Assembly (NCBI RefSeq): GCF_003258315.1
Contig: NZ_CP030032.1
Location: 1,092,001-1,156,000 of the forward strand
Reading direction: 5' to 3'
Source: Bradymonas sediminis
GTDB taxonomy: Bacteria > Myxococcota_A > Bradymonadia > Bradymonadales > Bradymonadaceae
DNA length: 64,000 nucleotides
The position numbers and the translations under genes were made by a program. The stretch's first letter is position 1; each line of letters starts with the position of its first letter. This document shows, piece after piece, positions 21,699 to 62,690 of the stretch. A model generated the notes under the pieces. It searched no databases. It was not told the DNA's origin and was given only the letters and a program-made list of their open reading frames with translations.

Positions 21699-24005
21699 TT
21701 AGAAGTAGAGGCTCAGCGTGAGGCGCGCGTTTAGGGGCGGGCCGGCGGTGGTTGTGAGGACGGGGATTTCGCTGGCCGGGGCGCCGGGTTGCCAGTGGCT
21801 GGCGTAGTGGTATTCGCCCTCGCGCAGGCGTTGATTGAGCAGGTTTTCGACCTCGAGATCCAGGCGCAGCCAATCCCAGTGATAGCCGACGGTGAGGTCG
21901 GTCATGAGCAGTGTTGCGCCGGTGGCGCCGTGGGGGAGCGTGCGCGGGGCGACGGCCAGGGCGCGCAGTCCGGCGCGAAAGCCGCTGGGGTGTGTTGCGA
22001 TGGCGCGCGCGCCGGCGGTGAGCCAGGGGGCGAGCGGGACGGGGTTGCCGGACTCGGTAAAGCGTGCGTCGACGTAGGTGATATCGGCGCGCAGGCTCAG
22101 CCAGGAGAGCGGGTCGGAGTAGAGGACGAGTTCGGCGCCGAGGCGGCGGGTGCCGTTGAGCTCGAGGTTGACGCCGGAGACGTGGTCGAAGATGGACTCG
22201 CGCTCGATGAAGGTCGCGAAGCCGGCGAGGCTCAGGCCGAACCAGTCTTTGGGGTTCCAGCGGGTGCCGAGTTCAAAGGCGTCGGAGACGGTGTTGGCGG
22301 GGTCACCTCCATCGTAGATCTCGTCGCCGATGCCGGATTGGGCGGGCTTAAATGTGGAGAAGGCGCGGGCTTCGGGCGAGCGCAAGCCGCGACCGTAGGC
22401 GGCGAAGAGTTGCCAGAATTCGCGTGCCTGCCAGCGTGCTGTGAGGCGCGGGGAGACTGCCAGGAGTTGGTCGTCGGATTGGGGCGTGTCGGCGAGGTGG
22501 TCGCGCAGGTCGAAATGAACGAGGTCGAGGCGCGCGCCGGTGTTGAGTTGAAGCGCGTGGTGGGGTTGCCATTGGAGGCCGGCGAGGGCGTGGGCGTTGA
22601 GCTGGACACCTTCGAGGTCACGGCGGCGAGCGACGGTTTCGAGGGAGTCGTCGACGTTGTCTTCGTGCTGGGCGAAGAGGTCGGCGCGCGCGCCGACGCC
22701 GGTCGCGATGGCAAGTTGGTCGAGGAGTTGGGCGCGGTGGTTGGCGAGGAGGCCGAAGGAGTAGGTGTCCTGGAATTGGGCGCGGCGGTCGCTGTTGACG
22801 GGGTCGATGAGGTAGCCAGTGAAGTTCTCGAGGAGTTCGAGGCGGCGATAGGCGGCGTAGGTGTTTATCGAGAGCGCGTCGCGTTGATAATTAAGGGCCA
22901 AGAGGGCGCGGGCGCTGCTGCCTTCGCCGAGGGGGTCGTAGGTATCATAGAAGCCGACGCGGCCGGCGTTGACGTCATCGTTTCGCAGCGCGCCGGGCAG
23001 GTCGAAGTTGGCGTAGCCGCCCAGGGCGATCAGGTCGAGGTAGTGCGAGTCAGTGGAGCCTGGGAGGCGGGTCTTTGCGTTCACGGTGGCGCGGTCGATG
23101 GAGCGGTTTTGTCCGAAGCTATCGTCGTGGGTCGCCTCGACGCCGACGAATTGTTCGCCGCGACCATCTATCGGTGAATAGCCGGCAAAGACGCGGTGTC
23201 TATTGGTGCTCCCAATCGAGTATGTCGCTCGCCAGCCCCGGTCCTGGGTTGGGACGCCGAGTTGATAGTCGGCTGAGCCGGCCATGGCGAAGAGGCCCTG
23301 GTTGAGGGTGAATGGTCCTTTGGTGACGCTGACGTTTCGGATGACTTCGGGGATGATGATGCCGAGGTCGAGGTAGCCCTGGGCGTGGATGTTAGACCAT
23401 TCGTTGAGGGGGATCCCGTCGAGGGTGATCTCGAGGTCGGCGCCGTGGATGGCGTCGAAGCCGCGCATGAAGAATTGGTGGCCTTTGCCTTCGCTGCCGT
23501 GTTGAACCAGCGTGAGGCCGGGGACCTGGCGCAGGAGCTCTTCGGCGTTTCGGTGGGGGGAGGCGGCGATCTCGCGCGCGCTGATCTGGGTGGATGAGGC
23601 GGTTTGGGGCGCGGGGGCGGCGGTGGTCGTGGTGACCGCGACGACGTCAGCGCCGGCCCACGTGAGCTCGATGAGGAGGGGGGCTTGGCGCTCATCCCCG
23701 GCGATGGTGACTTGAATCGGGTGGTAGTCCGGGGCGGTGACGCTCAGGGTGAGCGGGCCGTCGGGGAGGGCGTCGAGGTAGAAGTGTCCCGAGTCATCGG
23801 TGGAGGTCGCGAGGCCGCGGCCATCCACGCGCACCTCGGCGCCTGGGACGCCGTAGTCGTCTAGCTCGGCCTCGACGACGCGCCCTGAGATCGCGGCGGT
23901 GGTTTGTGCGTAGGCGAGGAGTGGCGTGGTTAACCATAGGCAGACGACGGCGGCAAAGCTAAGCTTTGCCGCCGTCGTTGCTTGCGCTGTGAGCGGACTA
24001 ATCAC
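21699..24005 (-). CDS. TonB-dependent outer-membrane receptor
   Basis: This 768-residue protein has a signal peptide, then a carboxypeptidase-regulatory-like domain (about 38-110, ISGRVVEAELDDYGVPGAEVRVDGRG). A plug follows (about 140-250: RNAEELLRQVPGLTLVQHG, FMRGFDAIHGADLEITLDGIPLNE), then a 22-strand-type barrel ending in the usual aromatic LTLSLYF. TonB receptors import metal chelates, vitamins or glycans using energy from TonB-ExbBD. It is the last gene of a three-gene minus-strand run behind two His-containing lipoproteins (gaps of 14 and 4 bases), so metal uptake is the most plausible role. The substrate is not proven. Confidence 0.9.
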   Translation of the reverse strand: MISPLTAQATTAAKLSFAAVVCLWLTTPLLAYAQTTAAISGRVVEAELDDYGVPGAEVRVDGRGLATSTDDSGHFYLDALPDGPLTLSVTAPDYHPIQVTIAGDERQAPLLIELTWAGADVVAVTTTTAAPAPQTASSTQISAREIAASPHRNAEELLRQVPGLTLVQHGSEGKGHQFFMRGFDAIHGADLEITLDGIPLNEWSNIHAQGYLDLGIIIPEVIRNVSVTKGPFTLNQGLFAMAGSADYQLGVPTQDRGWRATYSIGSTNRHRVFAGYSPIDGRGEQFVGVEATHDDSFGQNRSIDRATVNAKTRLPGSTDSHYLDLIALGGYANFDLPGALRNDDVNAGRVGFYDTYDPLGEGSSARALLALNYQRDALSINTYAAYRRLELLENFTGYLIDPVNSDRRAQFQDTYSFGLLANHRAQLLDQLAIATGVGARADLFAQHEDNVDDSLETVARRRDLEGVQLNAHALAGLQWQPHHALQLNTGARLDLVHFDLRDHLADTPQSDDQLLAVSPRLTARWQAREFWQLFAAYGRGLRSPEARAFSTFKPAQSGIGDEIYDGGDPANTVSDAFELGTRWNPKDWFGLSLAGFATFIERESIFDHVSGVNLELNGTRRLGAELVLYSDPLSWLSLRADITYVDARFTESGNPVPLAPWLTAGARAIATHPSGFRAGLRALAVAPRTLPHGATGATLLMTDLTVGYHWDWLRLDLEVENLLNQRLREGEYHYASHWQPGAPASEIPVLTTTAGPPLNARLTLSLYF

Positions 24006-24019
24006 TGGGGCTCGTCGTA

Positions 24020-24769
24020 TTAATTTGGCGAGGTGTGGGCGTGGCAGTGGCCTTCGCCGTCGACGTGGCCGACCGATTGGCTCTGGGCGCTGAGGAAGGC
24101 CCAGAGGTTATCGATGCCGCCCTGGCTGCCGGGGTCGTAGCTGCCGAGGTCTGCGGCTTCGAGTTCGGCCTGGGTGATATTGCCGTCATCATCCGCGTCG
24201 GCGTCGGCGAGGGCTTGGAAGACGAGGCGCGGGGTCTCGGAGACGAGGCTGTCGGCGAAGAGATGGTCGGCGTGGACGGTGATCTCGAAGGTGGCGTTGG
24301 CGTCGTCTTCGACGGTCGTGGAGGTCTCGCAGTCGGCGTAATGGGTGGTCTCTTCGAATTTGAAGTCGAAGGCTTTGGTGACGTCGCCCTTGGTGGCGGT
24401 GCCGGCTAATTTGATGCGGGTGATGGCGTAGCTTGGCTTGTCATGGGTGCCGACGGGGACGCTGGCGGTTGCGAGTGTGTGGCCGCTTCCGCTGGTCTGA
24501 CCGACGATGTCGATGGGATCCGGGGTGGGGATGGCGACGCCGCCGACGTTGACCTGGTCGATGCTGACGACGAAGTGGTCGAAGCTGACGGCCCAGCCGT
24601 CGTCCATCTGGTCGGCGGGGATGCCGTCTTCGATAAACTCTTCGCCGTAGACCTTCACGGTGAGGGTTCCCTCTTCGACGTTGGTATTGTCGTCGTCGTC
24701 GCCGCAGGCGGTGATGGCGGCGAGGCTCAGGGAGAGGGCGAGGAAGATAAGGAGTGTTTTGGTGTTCAT
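24020..24769 (-). CDS. Lipoprotein with EF-hand and His-rich tail, TonB-receptor partner
   Basis: Starting at the ATG at 24769, the protein has a signal peptide with lipobox ITAC followed by Asp-rich CGDDDDN. The 250-residue protein includes VSFDHFVVSIDQVNVGG near residue 60, an EF-hand-like calcium loop DADADDDGNITQ near 205 and a C-terminal end rich in His (GHVDGEGHCHAHTSPN). The tail is well suited to bind Zn, Cu or Ni. The gene ends 14 bases before the TonB receptor begins, which fits a surface metal- or ligand-binding partner. A longer start at 24793 is possible but would overlap the upstream gene. Confidence 0.8.
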   Translation of the reverse strand: MNTKTLLIFLALSLSLAAITACGDDDDNTNVEEGTLTVKVYGEEFIEDGIPADQMDDGWAVSFDHFVVSIDQVNVGGVAIPTPDPIDIVGQTSGSGHTLATASVPVGTHDKPSYAITRIKLAGTATKGDVTKAFDFKFEETTHYADCETSTTVEDDANATFEITVHADHLFADSLVSETPRLVFQALADADADDDGNITQAELEAADLGSYDPGSQGGIDNLWAFLSAQSQSVGHVDGEGHCHAHTSPN

Positions 24770-24773
24770 GGGA

Positions 24774-25613
24774 CTACTCTTGGTAATAGACAATATAGTG
24801 TTCAGCTAATTGAAAGGTGCGGCGAAATAAATTGTATGCGTCGGCGGAGTCGTCCAGGCTCTGTGGGCCAAGGTTGGCGAGTCCGTCGGGATTGGTCTGT
24901 AGTCTGTCGAAGTCGATTCCGTCAAAGATAGTGTCAAGTTCGACGGGATCTTCGGTGAGCAGCTGTATGGCCAGGCTGCCGGTGGCGTGTTCGTCGATAT
25001 GCGCCTGGAAGCCGGTCGACGTGCCGTCGGCGCGCGTGAGGGGGGCGCCGATGAGGTCGCGGTTGTCGTGGGAGTCCAGGACGATAGTGAATGAGGTGGA
25101 GGTGCCGTTGCGAGTTGCGGTACCCGAGATGATCGCGGTGTGGCCGGCCAGGGGATCGTCGGGGTCGAGGTGCTCTTCGGAGGCGCGGGCGAAGGTGAAG
25201 TTTGCGCCTCGGTAGGTGCCTGCGAGGAGGGTGGCGAGGCCGAGTTGTTGGCCGTCGTCTTCGAAGAAGTCGACGACGAATTCGCCGGGGAGTTCTCCGG
25301 TGACCTCACCGCCGCCGAAGTGGCCGGGGTGTGCGTGGGCGGTGGGGAGCAATGCGCGCGAGAGCGTCTGCCAGACCGAGTGGGCGTGGGTCTCGTTGGT
25401 GTGAAGTTCACCAGCGATGGTGAAGGCGAGGTTCTTGAAGGCCATGCGGGCATCGGTGACCTCGATTTGGTAGCCGAGGTCGGTGGTGACGGCCTTGAGT
25501 CCGCCGGCGTCGACGACAACGGGAAGTTCGACGCGGGGGGCCTCGGTGGGCTCATTGCATGCGGCGAGGAGAATGAGCAGGGCGGTGAGGATGATTGTTG
25601 TGCGTGTGTTCAT
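24774..25613 (-). CDS. Lipoprotein, first gene of the TonB-receptor operon
   Basis: This 279-residue protein has the lipobox LLAAC (Cys at about residue 19). The mature part has a His-bearing stretch (HTNETHAHSVW, then PTAHAHPGHFGGGEV), LAGTYRGANFTFARA, a histidine-containing HDNRDLIG and a helical C-terminus. The overall course resembles the next lipoprotein (a domain of an inner strand core plus His clusters), though the two are not close. It ends just 4 bases before the next lipoprotein's start, so the three genes form one transcript with the TonB receptor. Metal capture at the cell surface is the best inference. Confidence 0.8.
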   Translation of the reverse strand: MNTRTTIILTALLILLAACNEPTEAPRVELPVVVDAGGLKAVTTDLGYQIEVTDARMAFKNLAFTIAGELHTNETHAHSVWQTLSRALLPTAHAHPGHFGGGEVTGELPGEFVVDFFEDDGQQLGLATLLAGTYRGANFTFARASEEHLDPDDPLAGHTAIISGTATRNGTSTSFTIVLDSHDNRDLIGAPLTRADGTSTGFQAHIDEHATGSLAIQLLTEDPVELDTIFDGIDFDRLQTNPDGLANLGPQSLDDSADAYNLFRRTFQLAEHYIVYYQE

Positions 25614-25845
25614 GGGGCGGCGGTGGTGTTGCGGTGGAGTGGCTGAAGTGGCGGCTTGAGCGTCGAGGTCGCCGATGGCCGAGCATCATAGTCATTGGGG
25701 TTTGGAGTGCAATGGGGCAGATTGTCGCAGCCGTGGCTGCTGGTGCTCTAAATTGAGCGTGCCTATGAGTTGACAGCGACGTGGCAGGACGCGGCTCATA
25801 AGCATTGAGGAGCGAATGAAGCTGGGCGCATGATGTCTGCTACAC

Positions 25846-25878
25846 AAAGGCCCCGTCGACTGAGTCGACGGGGCCTTT
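25846..25878. terminator. Bidirectional terminator
   Basis: A 15-bp perfect stem, AAAGGCCCCGTCGAC, pairs with its complement around a TGA loop. The A and T tracts at both ends make it work in both directions. It lies 25 bases past the end of the GNAT gene. The rest of the 25614-25902 gap shows no gene. Confidence 0.88.
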
Positions 25879-25902
25879 ATTGTGGGTGATGAAGGCAGGG
25901 GG

Positions 25903-28640: not shown

Positions 28641-30326
<1,686 letters not shown>

Positions 30327-35069: not shown

Positions 35070-35279
35070 GTCTCGGTCTCCGGTTTTCATATTTTCGAGG
35101 GTTAAATCGAATAAGTCTTGCGCACTCGACCCGCTATGTCGTGAAGATAATTATCTATTTTTAATAGTGGGCTTGGATATTTACGGGGAGTCGTCTAAAT
35201 ATTCCGCGACGCATCCCGCCCGGAATTTTCATTTCCGTGTCGTTTCAACCCAAGCCTCATCTTCAACGCTATACCATAT

Positions 35280-59049: not shown

Positions 59050-59928
59050 TTACGCCGCCTCGTCGTTCGTCAACATGAATCTCTCAAACTGCATCGGTGA
59101 GACATAGTCGTTGAAGGAATGAAGACGGTGCGCGTTATACCACATTAAGTACCGCAGAATGGCGTGCCGAGCTGCGTCACGGGTGGCGAATTCTTCACGA
59201 TAGATGAGTTCAGTTTTAAGGGTTGAGAAAAAACTCTCACTGGGCGCATCGTCCCAGCAATTGCCCTTGCGACTCATGCTGACGGTGGCCTGGGCGTGCT
59301 TTAATGCCCCCTGATAGTCGTCAGCGGCGTATGGCGAGCCGCGGTCTGTGTGGTGAATAAAACCGGCCTCAGGCCGGCGGTGATTTAGGGCCATGTCAAG
59401 CGCGCCTAGGGCTAGCTTTTTGTCGATATATCGGCTCATGGCCCAGCCAACAACGCGCCGCGAATATAGGTCGATGAGCACCGCTAAATACAGCCAACCC
59501 TCGGCCGTTGGGACGTATGTAATGTCTCCGACCCAAGCCTGGTTGGGGGCGGCCGCCGTAAACTCGCGGTTAAGTTTGTTCAGGGCGACATCATAAATAT
59601 GACGCGAATCGGTGGTTCTACAGAACGCGCGTCGCTTGCGCGCAAAAAGACCGTTTTCACGCATCAGTCGTGCGATGCGATGCTTTCCAACGTGATGCCC
59701 GCGGGCCAAAAGAACGCGCAAAACACGACGAAAGCCGTAGCGTTTATGGTTTGCCTCGAAGATCTCGTCGATCTGAACCAACAGTGCTGCATTCTCTCGG
59801 GCACGCTTGGACAGCGGCCGTTTTTGCCAGTCGTAAAACCCGCTGCGGCTGACCCGCATCACGCGGCACAGCGTGCGCACGGGATGATTTGCCTTCTCCT
59901 CGTTGATGAACCGGTAGCGCTGGGTCAC
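59050..59928 (-). CDS. IS3-family transposase OrfB (DDE integrase domain)
   Basis: This 292-residue protein begins at GTG (59928), overlapping the end of orfA by four bases (GTGA). It has a HTH_21-like segment (YGFRRVLRVLLARGHHVGKHRIARLM) and the rve core with Asp in VGDITYVPT, Asp in HHTDRGSPYAA and Glu in SRKGNCWDDAPSESFFSTLKTE. It is probably made as an OrfAB fusion through frameshifting at 59958-59964. No truncation is seen. Confidence 0.92.
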   Translation of the reverse strand: MTQRYRFINEEKANHPVRTLCRVMRVSRSGFYDWQKRPLSKRARENAALLVQIDEIFEANHKRYGFRRVLRVLLARGHHVGKHRIARLMRENGLFARKRRAFCRTTDSRHIYDVALNKLNREFTAAAPNQAWVGDITYVPTAEGWLYLAVLIDLYSRRVVGWAMSRYIDKKLALGALDMALNHRRPEAGFIHHTDRGSPYAADDYQGALKHAQATVSMSRKGNCWDDAPSESFFSTLKTELIYREEFATRDAARHAILRYLMWYNAHRLHSFNDYVSPMQFERFMLTNDEAA

Positions 59929-61814: not shown

Positions 61815-62181
61815 CGGGGGATTTGTCGGTTGGTGTGTCGGCGATATAGGCGTTTGGGTGCTCCGCCCGGGGGCTCCTAGCAATGCGGCGGTTTCGGGCG
61901 TATCGGCGAGGCGTTGCAGTTCGGCGGACGTTCTATTCTCGGGGACTCACCCCCGGCTAAAAAGGTGTGGCTCCGCTACGCTTCGCCACACGGCGCTTCG
62001 CTTATTAACGGCGTCGCGCATCGCAGGTCGTCAATGAGCGCAGGCGAAGCCGAAGCGTCGTCCCGCGCAGCGGGACCTGCATAGCCGGGGGTGATGCCCA
62101 AATAGAGCGCAAACCATAGCCTGGCGCTCGCTTCCGAGAACGCCAAGACCAACGCAATCCGATGAGCCCCCGGAAGGCGTC
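61815..62181. repeat. 367-bp direct repeat, copy B
   Basis: Identical in length and order to copy A (60862-61228), with a GCA loop in the GTCCCGC-NNN-GCGGGAC hairpin. Before it, at 61750-61815, lies a local tandem duplication of GGCGATATAGGCGTTTGGGT. After it comes a degenerate run of the 33-bp unit. Confidence 0.92.
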
Positions 62182-62290
62182 GCAAATCATCCAACGCCGA
62201 CATTACGCATCGTCGCAAATCATCCAATCCCACCGTTACGCATCGTCGCGCATCATCCAGCCCCACCGTTAAGCATCGTCACAAGCCATC
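62182..62290. repeat. Degenerate run of the 33-bp tandem unit
   Basis: About three diverged copies of the unit (GTCGCRNATCATCCA-ACGCATC type) follow copy B directly. They have more substitutions than the array at 62474-62690. Confidence 0.75.
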
Positions 62291-62292
62291 CA

Positions 62293-62477
62293 TTATTAAC
62301 AGCGTCGAGTCGCGCATCGCAGGTCGTCAATGAGCGTAGGCGAAGCCGAAGCGTCGTCCCGCGTAGCGGGACCTGCATAGCCGGGGGTGACGCCCAAATA
62401 GAGCGCAAACCCCCGCCTGGCTATGGCTTCCGAGAACGCCAAGACCAACGCAAACCGATGAGCCCCCGGAAGGCGTC
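62293..62477. repeat. Partial copy C of the 367-bp repeat (3' half)
   Basis: It starts in TTATTAAC, holds the GTCCCGC-NNN-GCGGGAC hairpin (GTA loop) and ends at GGAAGGCGTC, matching the second half of copies A and B. It is followed directly by the 33-bp array. Confidence 0.9.
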
Positions 62478-62690
62478 GCGCATCATCCAACGCCGACATT
62501 ACGCATCGTCGCGCATCATCCAACCCCGACATTACGCATCGTCGCGCATCATCCAACGCCGACATTACGCATCGTCGCGCATCATCCAACGCCGACATTA
62601 CGCATCATCGCGCATCATCCAACGCCGACATTACGCATCGTCGCGCATCATCCAACGCCGACATTACGCATCGTCGCGCATCATCCAACA
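62474..62690. repeat. 33-bp tandem repeat array, six full units
   Basis: Six units of CGTCGCGCATCATCCAACGC plus CGACATTACGCAT lie head to tail, with single-base differences in units 2 and 5, and a partial seventh ends at 62690. There are no spacers, so this is a minisatellite and not a CRISPR. Because 33 is a multiple of three, long open frames appear by chance on both strands. The 62691-62963 stretch holds no gene beyond the region before tolQ. Confidence 0.95.

What the first reader, a model, noticed from the sequence alone, without database searches (positions are those of the whole stretch)
21699..25613. TonB receptor with two His-bearing lipoproteins in one operon
Two lipoproteins, one with a GEGHCHAH tail and an EF-hand and one with AHAHPGHFG, precede the receptor by 4 and 14 bases. 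The set looks like a metal uptake system in which lipoproteins catch the metal at the surface; I do not know a named system of this kind.
Basis: partly seen in the sequence, partly recalled or inferred. Interest (0 to 1): 0.5.

Follow-up and report, generated by a model that had tools for sequence, protein, structure and literature searches.

The report
Predicted nickel importer with twin lipoproteins
This three-gene bacterial operon looks like an uncharacterised outer-membrane metal importer, most likely for nickel, made of a TonB receptor and two related lipoproteins; in several relatives it is headed by the nickel sensor gene nikR.

Summary
In detail: a minus-strand operon encodes lipoprotein P1 (AHAHPGHFG), P2 (EF-hand loop, GEGHC tail) and a TonB receptor, P3. 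The module is conserved across Myxococcota: all three genes together in 28 of 37 named loci. Metal uptake is supported, and nickel is indicated rather than zinc or copper. In 7 of the 37 loci nikR lies directly upstream. In 6 of 8 nikR-adjacent genomes searched, the published delta-proteobacterial NikR box GTGTTAC-N14-GTAACAC occurs exactly once, just before that nikR. HX4DH nickel/cobalt-type permeases lie by the module in three genomes. The window receptor sits in a clade where half the members are nikR-linked. P1 and P2 are homologous and both have copper-binding MbnP as best solved-structure match (clear for P1, tied for P2). The receptor plug keeps three histidines. Against: the window genome lacks NikR, the box, NiFe hydrogenase, urease and a NicO permease over cut-off, so its own metal and regulator are inferred from relatives. 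Some nikR-less relatives carry a His-rich leader ORF ending in R(A/G)PP, resembling the copper-responsive leader CruR. New variant of a known kind; no experiment yet.

The parts
24774..25613 (-). P1: 279-aa lipoprotein, MbnP-like fold predicted, first gene of the operon
   Evidence: families A1/A4; model pLDDT 89.3; best solved-structure match MbnP 7l6g, Z 10.3 over 187 residues, rmsd 3.9, next row 5.8
25314..25340 (-). P1 AHAHPGHFG loop (A92-G100)
   Evidence: AHPxH core invariant in 15 of 15; low-confidence, probably mobile loop in the model (94-99, pLDDT below 50)
24020..24769 (-). P2: 249-aa lipoprotein, MbnP-like fold predicted, EF-hand-type loop and GEGHC tail
   Evidence: families A2/A5; model pLDDT 92.4; top row MbnP 7l6g, Z 8.3 over 163 residues, rmsd 3.7, tied with 4jde at 7.6 over 123; homologous to P1 (hhalign 98.3%, E 2.1e-14)
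24164..24199 (-). EF-hand-type loop in P2 (D191-E202)
   Evidence: sequence; PF13202 matches 20 of 31 P2 members, best E 2.7e-4, not the window's own
24035..24058 (-). P2 GEGHCHAH tail; GEGHC conserved, final HAH not
21699..24005 (-). P3: TonB-dependent receptor, GTG start
   Evidence: tree position
23385..23501 (-). P3 plug segment with H169 (47 of 48 rows), H187 (47 of 48), H207 (48 of 48): candidate metal path
23694..23891 (-). P3 N-terminal CarboxypepD_reg-like domain, missing from some homologues
25614..25902 (-). Intergenic region upstream of the operon: no NikR box; holds an inverted repeat with 12-base arms at 25846-25878, perhaps the end of the upstream GNAT gene's transcript
   Evidence: the repeat was not listed by the terminator scan

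Best explanation
The operon encodes an outer-membrane importer of a scarce divalent metal, most probably nickel (cobalt not excluded). Two homologous lipoproteins of MbnP-like fold, P1 and P2, bind the metal or a metal chelate through conserved His/Asp/Glu/Cys (P1 AHPxH loop; P2 HxDH and GH..GEGHC) and hand it to P3, a TonB-dependent receptor whose plug carries three near-invariant His. TonB energy pulls it into the periplasm and an inner-membrane permease takes it further; in some relatives a HX4DH Ni/Co-type permease lies by the module. In several relatives the operon is headed by nikR and a NikR box, so ample nickel would shut it off. Shown here: the genes, conservation, synteny, NikR genes and boxes, tree position, predicted folds. 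Inferred: metal binding, transfer order, energy coupling, and that the window's copy, which has no nikR, keeps nickel as substrate.
For: (1) nikR directly upstream of the module in 7 of 37 named loci (L101, L105, L106, L123, L127, L128, L129); 8 of 8 adjacent NikR proteins tested (these and L179) exceed the cut-offs of two NCBIfam NikR equivalogs, NF003381 and NF002815, though not that of TIGR02793. (2) Of 377 Myxococcota genomes 64 have NikR_C, and in 12 of these it lies within about 2.1 kb of a P1 or P2 hit, G336 being fragmentary. (3) The exact NikR box occurs once per genome in 6 of 8 nikR-adjacent genomes searched, each time just upstream of this nikR; G007 has it with 1 mismatch, G125 with 2. 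The consensus is published for delta-proteobacteria (PMC545781, passages). (4) HX4DH permeases: after P3 in G021 (L026/L100, start overlapping the P3 stop by one base) and in L168, about 2.2 kb upstream of P3 in L179. (5) Window P3 is nearest by path to Plesiocystis pacifica P3 (nikR-linked) and lies in a clade of 12 rows (SH-aLRT 99), 6 nikR-linked (quick tree). (6) Folds, P1-P2 homology and conserved ligand-type residues.
Against: The window genome has no NikR_C, no NikR box (0 matches up to 3 mismatches in the window; genome-wide one 2-mismatch match against 6 for the reversed control), no NiFe hydrogenase, no urease, no Sod_Ni (control silent), no NicO. At up to 2 mismatches the reversed control matched as often as the box or more in 9 of 9 genomes (44 against 8 in G007), so only exact or near-exact boxes count. 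30 of 37 named loci have no adjacent nikR, 52 of 64 NikR genomes do not have it by a P1 or P2 hit (many assemblies are fragmented), and the label is scattered on the tree (7 changes, as low in 182 of 500 shuffles). L179 and L187 have nikR but no such box. The permeases score under the curated NicO cut-off, and L179's best Pfam match is DsbD_2. The P3 of highest identity to the window's, L100 (67%), has no adjacent nikR. The best fold match is a copper protein.
Confidence: 0.62

Rival explanations
1. Same machine, but the physiological metal is cobalt (for cobalamin enzymes), or both nickel and cobalt.
For: No nickel enzyme was found in the window genome. Of the 12 nikR-adjacent genomes 10 show no urease, and in hydrogenase only G346 has more than weak partial hits. 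HX4DH permeases may carry either metal (recalled).
Against: NikR, a nickel-responsive equivalog by NCBIfam, heads the operon in relatives. No Rfam family at gathering score in the window, so no cobalamin riboswitch there.
Confidence: 0.15
2. A copper importer: P1 and P2 work like MbnP in methanobactin operons.
For: MbnP is the top solved-structure match of both models. CruR-like leader ORFs in 16 of 72 loci resemble the copper-responsive DUF2946 leader (PMC9426467, passages). An MbnH-family enzyme over cut-off lies 2.9 kb from one P1-P2 pair.
Against: No MbnP model match for the window P1 or P2; no MbnH inside the operon; none of the 16 leaders has CXXC, the copper sensor of CruR; NikR linkage.
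Confidence: 0.09
3. A zinc importer, as the first reader's Zur test implies.
For: His-rich leader and neighbour proteins; a weak ZrgA match (18.8 bits, cut-off 27.4) of a protein beside one locus; weak ZIP matches of two leaders under cut-off.
Against: NikR linkage. Two delta-proteobacterial Zur consensus sequences give no match by the operon; one chance-level match lies at 59776.
Confidence: 0.07
4. Uptake of an organic compound, with the lipoproteins as substrate-binding partners as in SusCD-type pairs.
For: P3 has an N-terminal CarboxypepD_reg domain and matches SusC models weakly; its best sequence match among solved chains is YncD/PqqU.
Against: No SusD-type Pfam match for P1 or P2; NikR control in relatives; ligand-type residues conserved.
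Confidence: 0.05

Closest known systems
NikR-repressed nickel TonB receptors of Helicobacter (FrpB4, FecA3, NikH)
   Same: TonB receptor under NikR, for nickel across the outer membrane (PMC3856676, passages; list of nickel TonB receptors in PMC11247825, passages).
   Different: No paired lipoproteins appear in the passages read. P3 was not compared with those receptors directly; its hits are YncD/PqqU and general TonB models.
MbnP/MbnH pair with MbnT (methanobactin operons)
   Same: Both lipoproteins have MbnP as best fold match; MbnP/MbnH genes often neighbour a TonB receptor (PMC3621798, passages).
   Different: No MbnP sequence-model match, no MbnH in the operon, two paralogues instead of one, lipoboxes, EF-hand loop in P2, nikR linkage in relatives.
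Delta-proteobacterial NikR regulons (nikMNQO and others; Rodionov et al. 2004)
   Same: Same NikR box consensus (PMC545781, passages).
   Different: There the sites precede ABC-type nickel transporter genes, a hydrogenase operon and one unnamed cluster; here they precede an outer-membrane module.
CruR (DUF2946)-TonB receptor operon of Bordetella
   Same: Small leader ORF with R(A/G)PP tail just upstream of a TonB-receptor operon, in some relatives.
   Different: His-rich and without CXXC; none found by the window's operon; DUF2946 matches under cut-off in 2 of 7 leaders scanned, none in 5.

Membership tests
NikR-regulated nickel TonB receptor | TonB receptor plug and barrel | tested here: met
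   Pfam Plug and TonB_dep_Rec_b-barrel over cut-off
NikR-regulated nickel TonB receptor | NikR gene and NikR box at the operon, in relatives | tested here: met
   nikR in 7 of 37 named loci; exact box in 6 of 8 nikR-adjacent genomes searched
NikR-regulated nickel TonB receptor | NikR control of the window's own copy | tested here: not met
   No NikR_C in the genome and no box
NikR-regulated nickel TonB receptor | Nickel transport | not testable with these tools
   needs an uptake assay
MbnP | MbnP-type fold | tested here: inconclusive
   Top match for both: P1 Z 10.3, clear of the next row (5.8); P2 Z 8.3, tied with 4jde (7.6). Best Foldseek E 3.5e-3 and 1.2e-3, TM about 0.3-0.4
MbnP | Match to the MbnP sequence model (TIGR04052, named in PMC3621798) | tested here: not met
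   No such hit for the window P1 or P2 among NCBIfam models up to E 1; other members were not scanned against NCBIfam; no Pfam family fits the two families
MbnP | MbnH di-haem partner in the operon | tested here: not met
   None inside the operon by CXXCH scan; one MbnH over cut-off 2.9 kb away in L171
SusC/SusD | SusD-type lipoprotein | tested here: not met
   No SusD model for P1 or P2
NiCoT/NicO permease (ORF by P3 in relatives) | Curated NicO score and HX4DH signature | tested here: inconclusive
   HX4DH present in 3 genomes; NicO 18.7-24.4 bits against cut-off 27.7
CruR/DUF2946 leader (relatives only) | C-terminal RAPP-type motif, ORF close upstream of a TonB operon | tested here: met
   16 of 72 loci, against 6 similar ORFs elsewhere in 902,900 bp
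CruR/DUF2946 leader (relatives only) | CXXC metal-sensing motif | tested here: not met
   0 of 16

The most novel reading that the evidence does not exclude
Myxococcota share an undescribed outer-membrane nickel-import complex: a TonB receptor served by a diverged pair of MbnP-fold lipoproteins. Its regulation is interchangeable between lineages: either NikR with its box, or a His-rich, CXXC-less CruR-like arrest leader that senses Ni, Co or Zn during its own translation. In several genomes this module has the only exact NikR box although no NiFe hydrogenase or urease is found, which would imply an unrecognised use of nickel.
Probability: 0.35. Interest if true: 0.78.

Novelty: new variant of a known kind. 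Interest (0 to 1): 0.6.

Why it matters
How nickel crosses the outer membrane is known for few receptors, best in Helicobacter. If right, this gives a widespread, lipoprotein-assisted route in a soil and marine phylum, extends the MbnP fold from copper to nickel, and proposes a substrate for two families without a Pfam name. NikR control in genomes where no NiFe hydrogenase or urease was found makes a concrete question testable: what do these bacteria use nickel for?

Tried and rejected
NikR in the window genome: absent. Delta-type NikR box in the window: none up to 3 mismatches; enterobacterial type with N14: one chance-level match at 35278, far from the operon. Fur and two delta-proteobacterial Zur consensus sequences (from PMC545781): nothing by the operon. 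Rfam on the window: nothing at gathering score. Nickel enzymes of the window genome: none of three families, the Sod_Ni control being silent. NicO in the order: 0 of 26 over cut-off; its one weak hit led to the permease by P3 in G021. Sigma-70 promoter scan: nothing. The HX4DH scan flagged 5 distinct ORFs; two (L030, L109/L197) were dismissed by eye as not membrane permeases. In the neighbour clustering the NikR cluster held 3 loci; larger clusters (5 loci) came from closely related MAGs, and a protein-kinase cluster had 4; the further nikR loci were found by tblastn. MbnH as a general partner: rejected, one locus. Exclusion between nikR and His-rich leaders (0 of 11 against 16 of 61) is not significant (Fisher p 0.11). 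Search of solved chains by profile: P1 none; P2 only weak EF-hand proteins. Pfam on 38 P1 members: one member matched an unrelated family.

Rows dropped: truncated P2 of L116 from A5; near-duplicate L030 and three P3 fragments from A3; P3 rows under 350 aa from the tree and under 550 aa. In one search near-duplicate loci were removed by hand, loci whose upstream DNA is cut by a contig end were counted as 'neither', and 4 of the 16 leaders (L116, L122, L178, L202) overlap the 5' open frame of the module gene.
Full report
Observation. On the minus strand P1 (25613-24774), P2 (24769-24020) and P3 (24005-21699) follow each other with gaps of 4 and 14 bases. P1 and P2 have lipoboxes; P1 has AHAHPGHFG, P2 a canonical EF-hand loop and GEGHCHAH. 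P3 has plug, barrel and an N-terminal CarboxypepD_reg domain. The window's P1 and P2 match no Pfam or NCBIfam family over cut-off. A GNAT gene lies upstream, with an inverted repeat at 25846-25878 between it and P1 (not listed by the terminator scan); a plus-strand ORF ends 4 bases beyond the P3 stop.

Conservation. In the order P2 is found in 9 of 26 genomes and P1 in 15 of 26; in 377 genomes of the phylum P2 in 116 and P1 in 84. A scan of named genomes by the P1 pattern AHP[GN]HxxGGE gave 37 loci: P1+P2+P3 in 28, P3+P1 in 6, P1+P2 at a contig end in 3; 23 of the 28 are co-directional, 5 have P3 divergent. P1 keeps AHP.H in 15 of 15 proteins of the unselected set. P2 keeps H166, D168, H169, H235 and E239 in 31 of 31. 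In a further set from more distant families, which repeats 5 of the named loci, I count HPGH in 26 of 33 P1 and HxDH in 35 of 38 P2. In 48 receptors the plug keeps H169 (47), H187 (47) and H207 (48).

Which metal. NikR lies directly upstream in 7 of 37 named loci, before P1 in six and before P2 in L127. 8 of 8 adjacent NikR tested exceed two NCBIfam NikR equivalog cut-offs but not that of TIGR02793; the HxH...C pattern of the nickel site (recalled) is visible in them. In the phylum NikR_C occurs in 64 of 377 genomes and lies by P1 or P2 in 12 of them (G007, G010, G011, G012, G089, G104, G125, G203, G225, G336, G346, G363), 10 genera by the tables' codes. Upstream of nikR sits a perfect palindrome GTGTTAC-N14-GTAACAC in L101, L106, L123, L128, L129 and L030, a symmetric variant in L127 and a one-mismatch form in L105. 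It equals the delta-proteobacterial NikR consensus GTGTTAC-[N13/14]-GTAACAC of Rodionov et al. 2004 (PMC545781, passages). In 8 nikR-adjacent genomes the exact box occurs once in each of 6 (G010 and G011 share a genus), always here. With 2 mismatches allowed the reversed control matches as often or more, so weaker matches mean nothing. L179 and L187 have nikR but no such box within 2 mismatches.

A membrane protein with the HX4DH signature of Ni/Co permeases (signature recalled) starts on the last base of the P3 stop in G021, follows P3 in L168 and lies about 2.2 kb upstream of P3 in L179. Nickel-permease models match all three, under cut-off; L179 matches DsbD_2 better, and L026 a BacA model almost as well.

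The window's place. In a quick P3 tree the window nests in a clade of 12 rows (SH-aLRT 99), 6 nikR-linked; nearest by path is Plesiocystis pacifica, nikR-linked, while highest identity (67%) is to L100, without nikR but with the permease. nikR adjacency needs 7 changes, no fewer than many shuffles (182 of 500), so it comes and goes. The window genome has no NikR, box, NiFe hydrogenase, urease or NicO. This weakens the nickel claim for the window. But nikR-adjacent relatives G007, G010, G011, G012, G104, G125 and G203 also show no hydrogenase or urease hit (some assemblies incomplete), and G089, G225 and G363 only weak partial hydrogenase-model hits that I read as complex-I-like; G336 and G346 have urease. 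A 2009 survey noted organisms with nickel transporters and no known nickel enzyme, perhaps using glyoxalase I (PMC2667541, passages).

Structure. AlphaFold2 models of P2 (pLDDT 92.4) and P1 (89.3) are good. Best Foldseek E-values are only 3.5e-3 (P1) and 1.2e-3 (P2). Profile comparison makes P1 and P2 homologous (98.3%, E 2.1e-14), which supports the same fold for P2. In methanobactin operons MbnP, with di-haem MbnH, often neighbours a TonB receptor (PMC3621798, passages).

Mechanism. Metal or metal chelate is caught by the lipoproteins, passed to the receptor plug and pulled in by TonB; NikR shuts the operon when nickel is ample in relatives that have it. Only genes, linkage, sites and predicted folds are shown; binding, handover and transport are inferred.

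A second regulator. In 16 of 72 loci, none with nikR, an ORF ending in R(A/G)PP with at least 9 His in its last 170 residues sits just upstream of the module; 6 similar ORFs lie elsewhere in 902,900 bp. None of the 16 has CXXC. In Bordetella the DUF2946 leader CruR stalls at a C-terminal RAPP motif; copper, perceived by its CXXC, relieves the stall and lets Rho stop transcription before a TonB-receptor gene (PMC9426467, passages). A His-rich version sensing Ni, Co or Zn is plausible but untested; DUF2946 matches are weak (2 of 7 scanned, under cut-off) and exclusion with nikR is not significant (p 0.11).

Novelty. Literature searches listed no paper on this module; only open-licence PMC papers were searched, and I read listings and passages, not whole texts. 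NikR-controlled nickel TonB receptors are known, and MbnP near TonB receptors is known; twin MbnP-fold lipoproteins with a NikR-linked receptor were not found. I call it a new variant of a known kind.

Noticed in passing
window 30229-30310: (GT)17 and (GTTTT)6.2 simple repeats lie in the first codons of the membrane-protein-like ORF 28641-30326 (minus); slippage could switch this gene on and off.
   Followed up: partly
window 62013-62689: Tandem repeats: a 296-base unit 1.9 times and a 33-base unit 6.5 times at 97% match.
   Followed up: no
L109, L110, L114, L116, L119, L121, L122, L125, L032, L176, L178, L181, L188, L193, L194, L202 (upstream of P1 or P3): His-rich leader ORFs ending in R(A/G)PP without CXXC, resembling the copper-responsive leader CruR/DUF2946: possible new metal-sensing leader family.
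   Followed up: partly
L026:6366-6986 (-), L168:3168-3806 (-), L179:13392-14027 (-): Short HX4DH permease-like proteins below the NicO cut-off by the receptor: perhaps an unmodelled branch of Ni/Co permeases.
   Followed up: partly
L171:5593-6780 (+): MbnH-family di-haem enzyme over cut-off 2.9 kb from a P1-P2 pair.
   Followed up: no
L179:6445-7038 (-): NikR with a long His-rich C-terminal extension.
   Followed up: no
G225:C196:8553-8580 (L240): Second, one-mismatch NikR-type box in the genome of L101 (Plesiocystis), by an ORF that looks like a secreted peptidase by eye; function unknown.
   Followed up: partly
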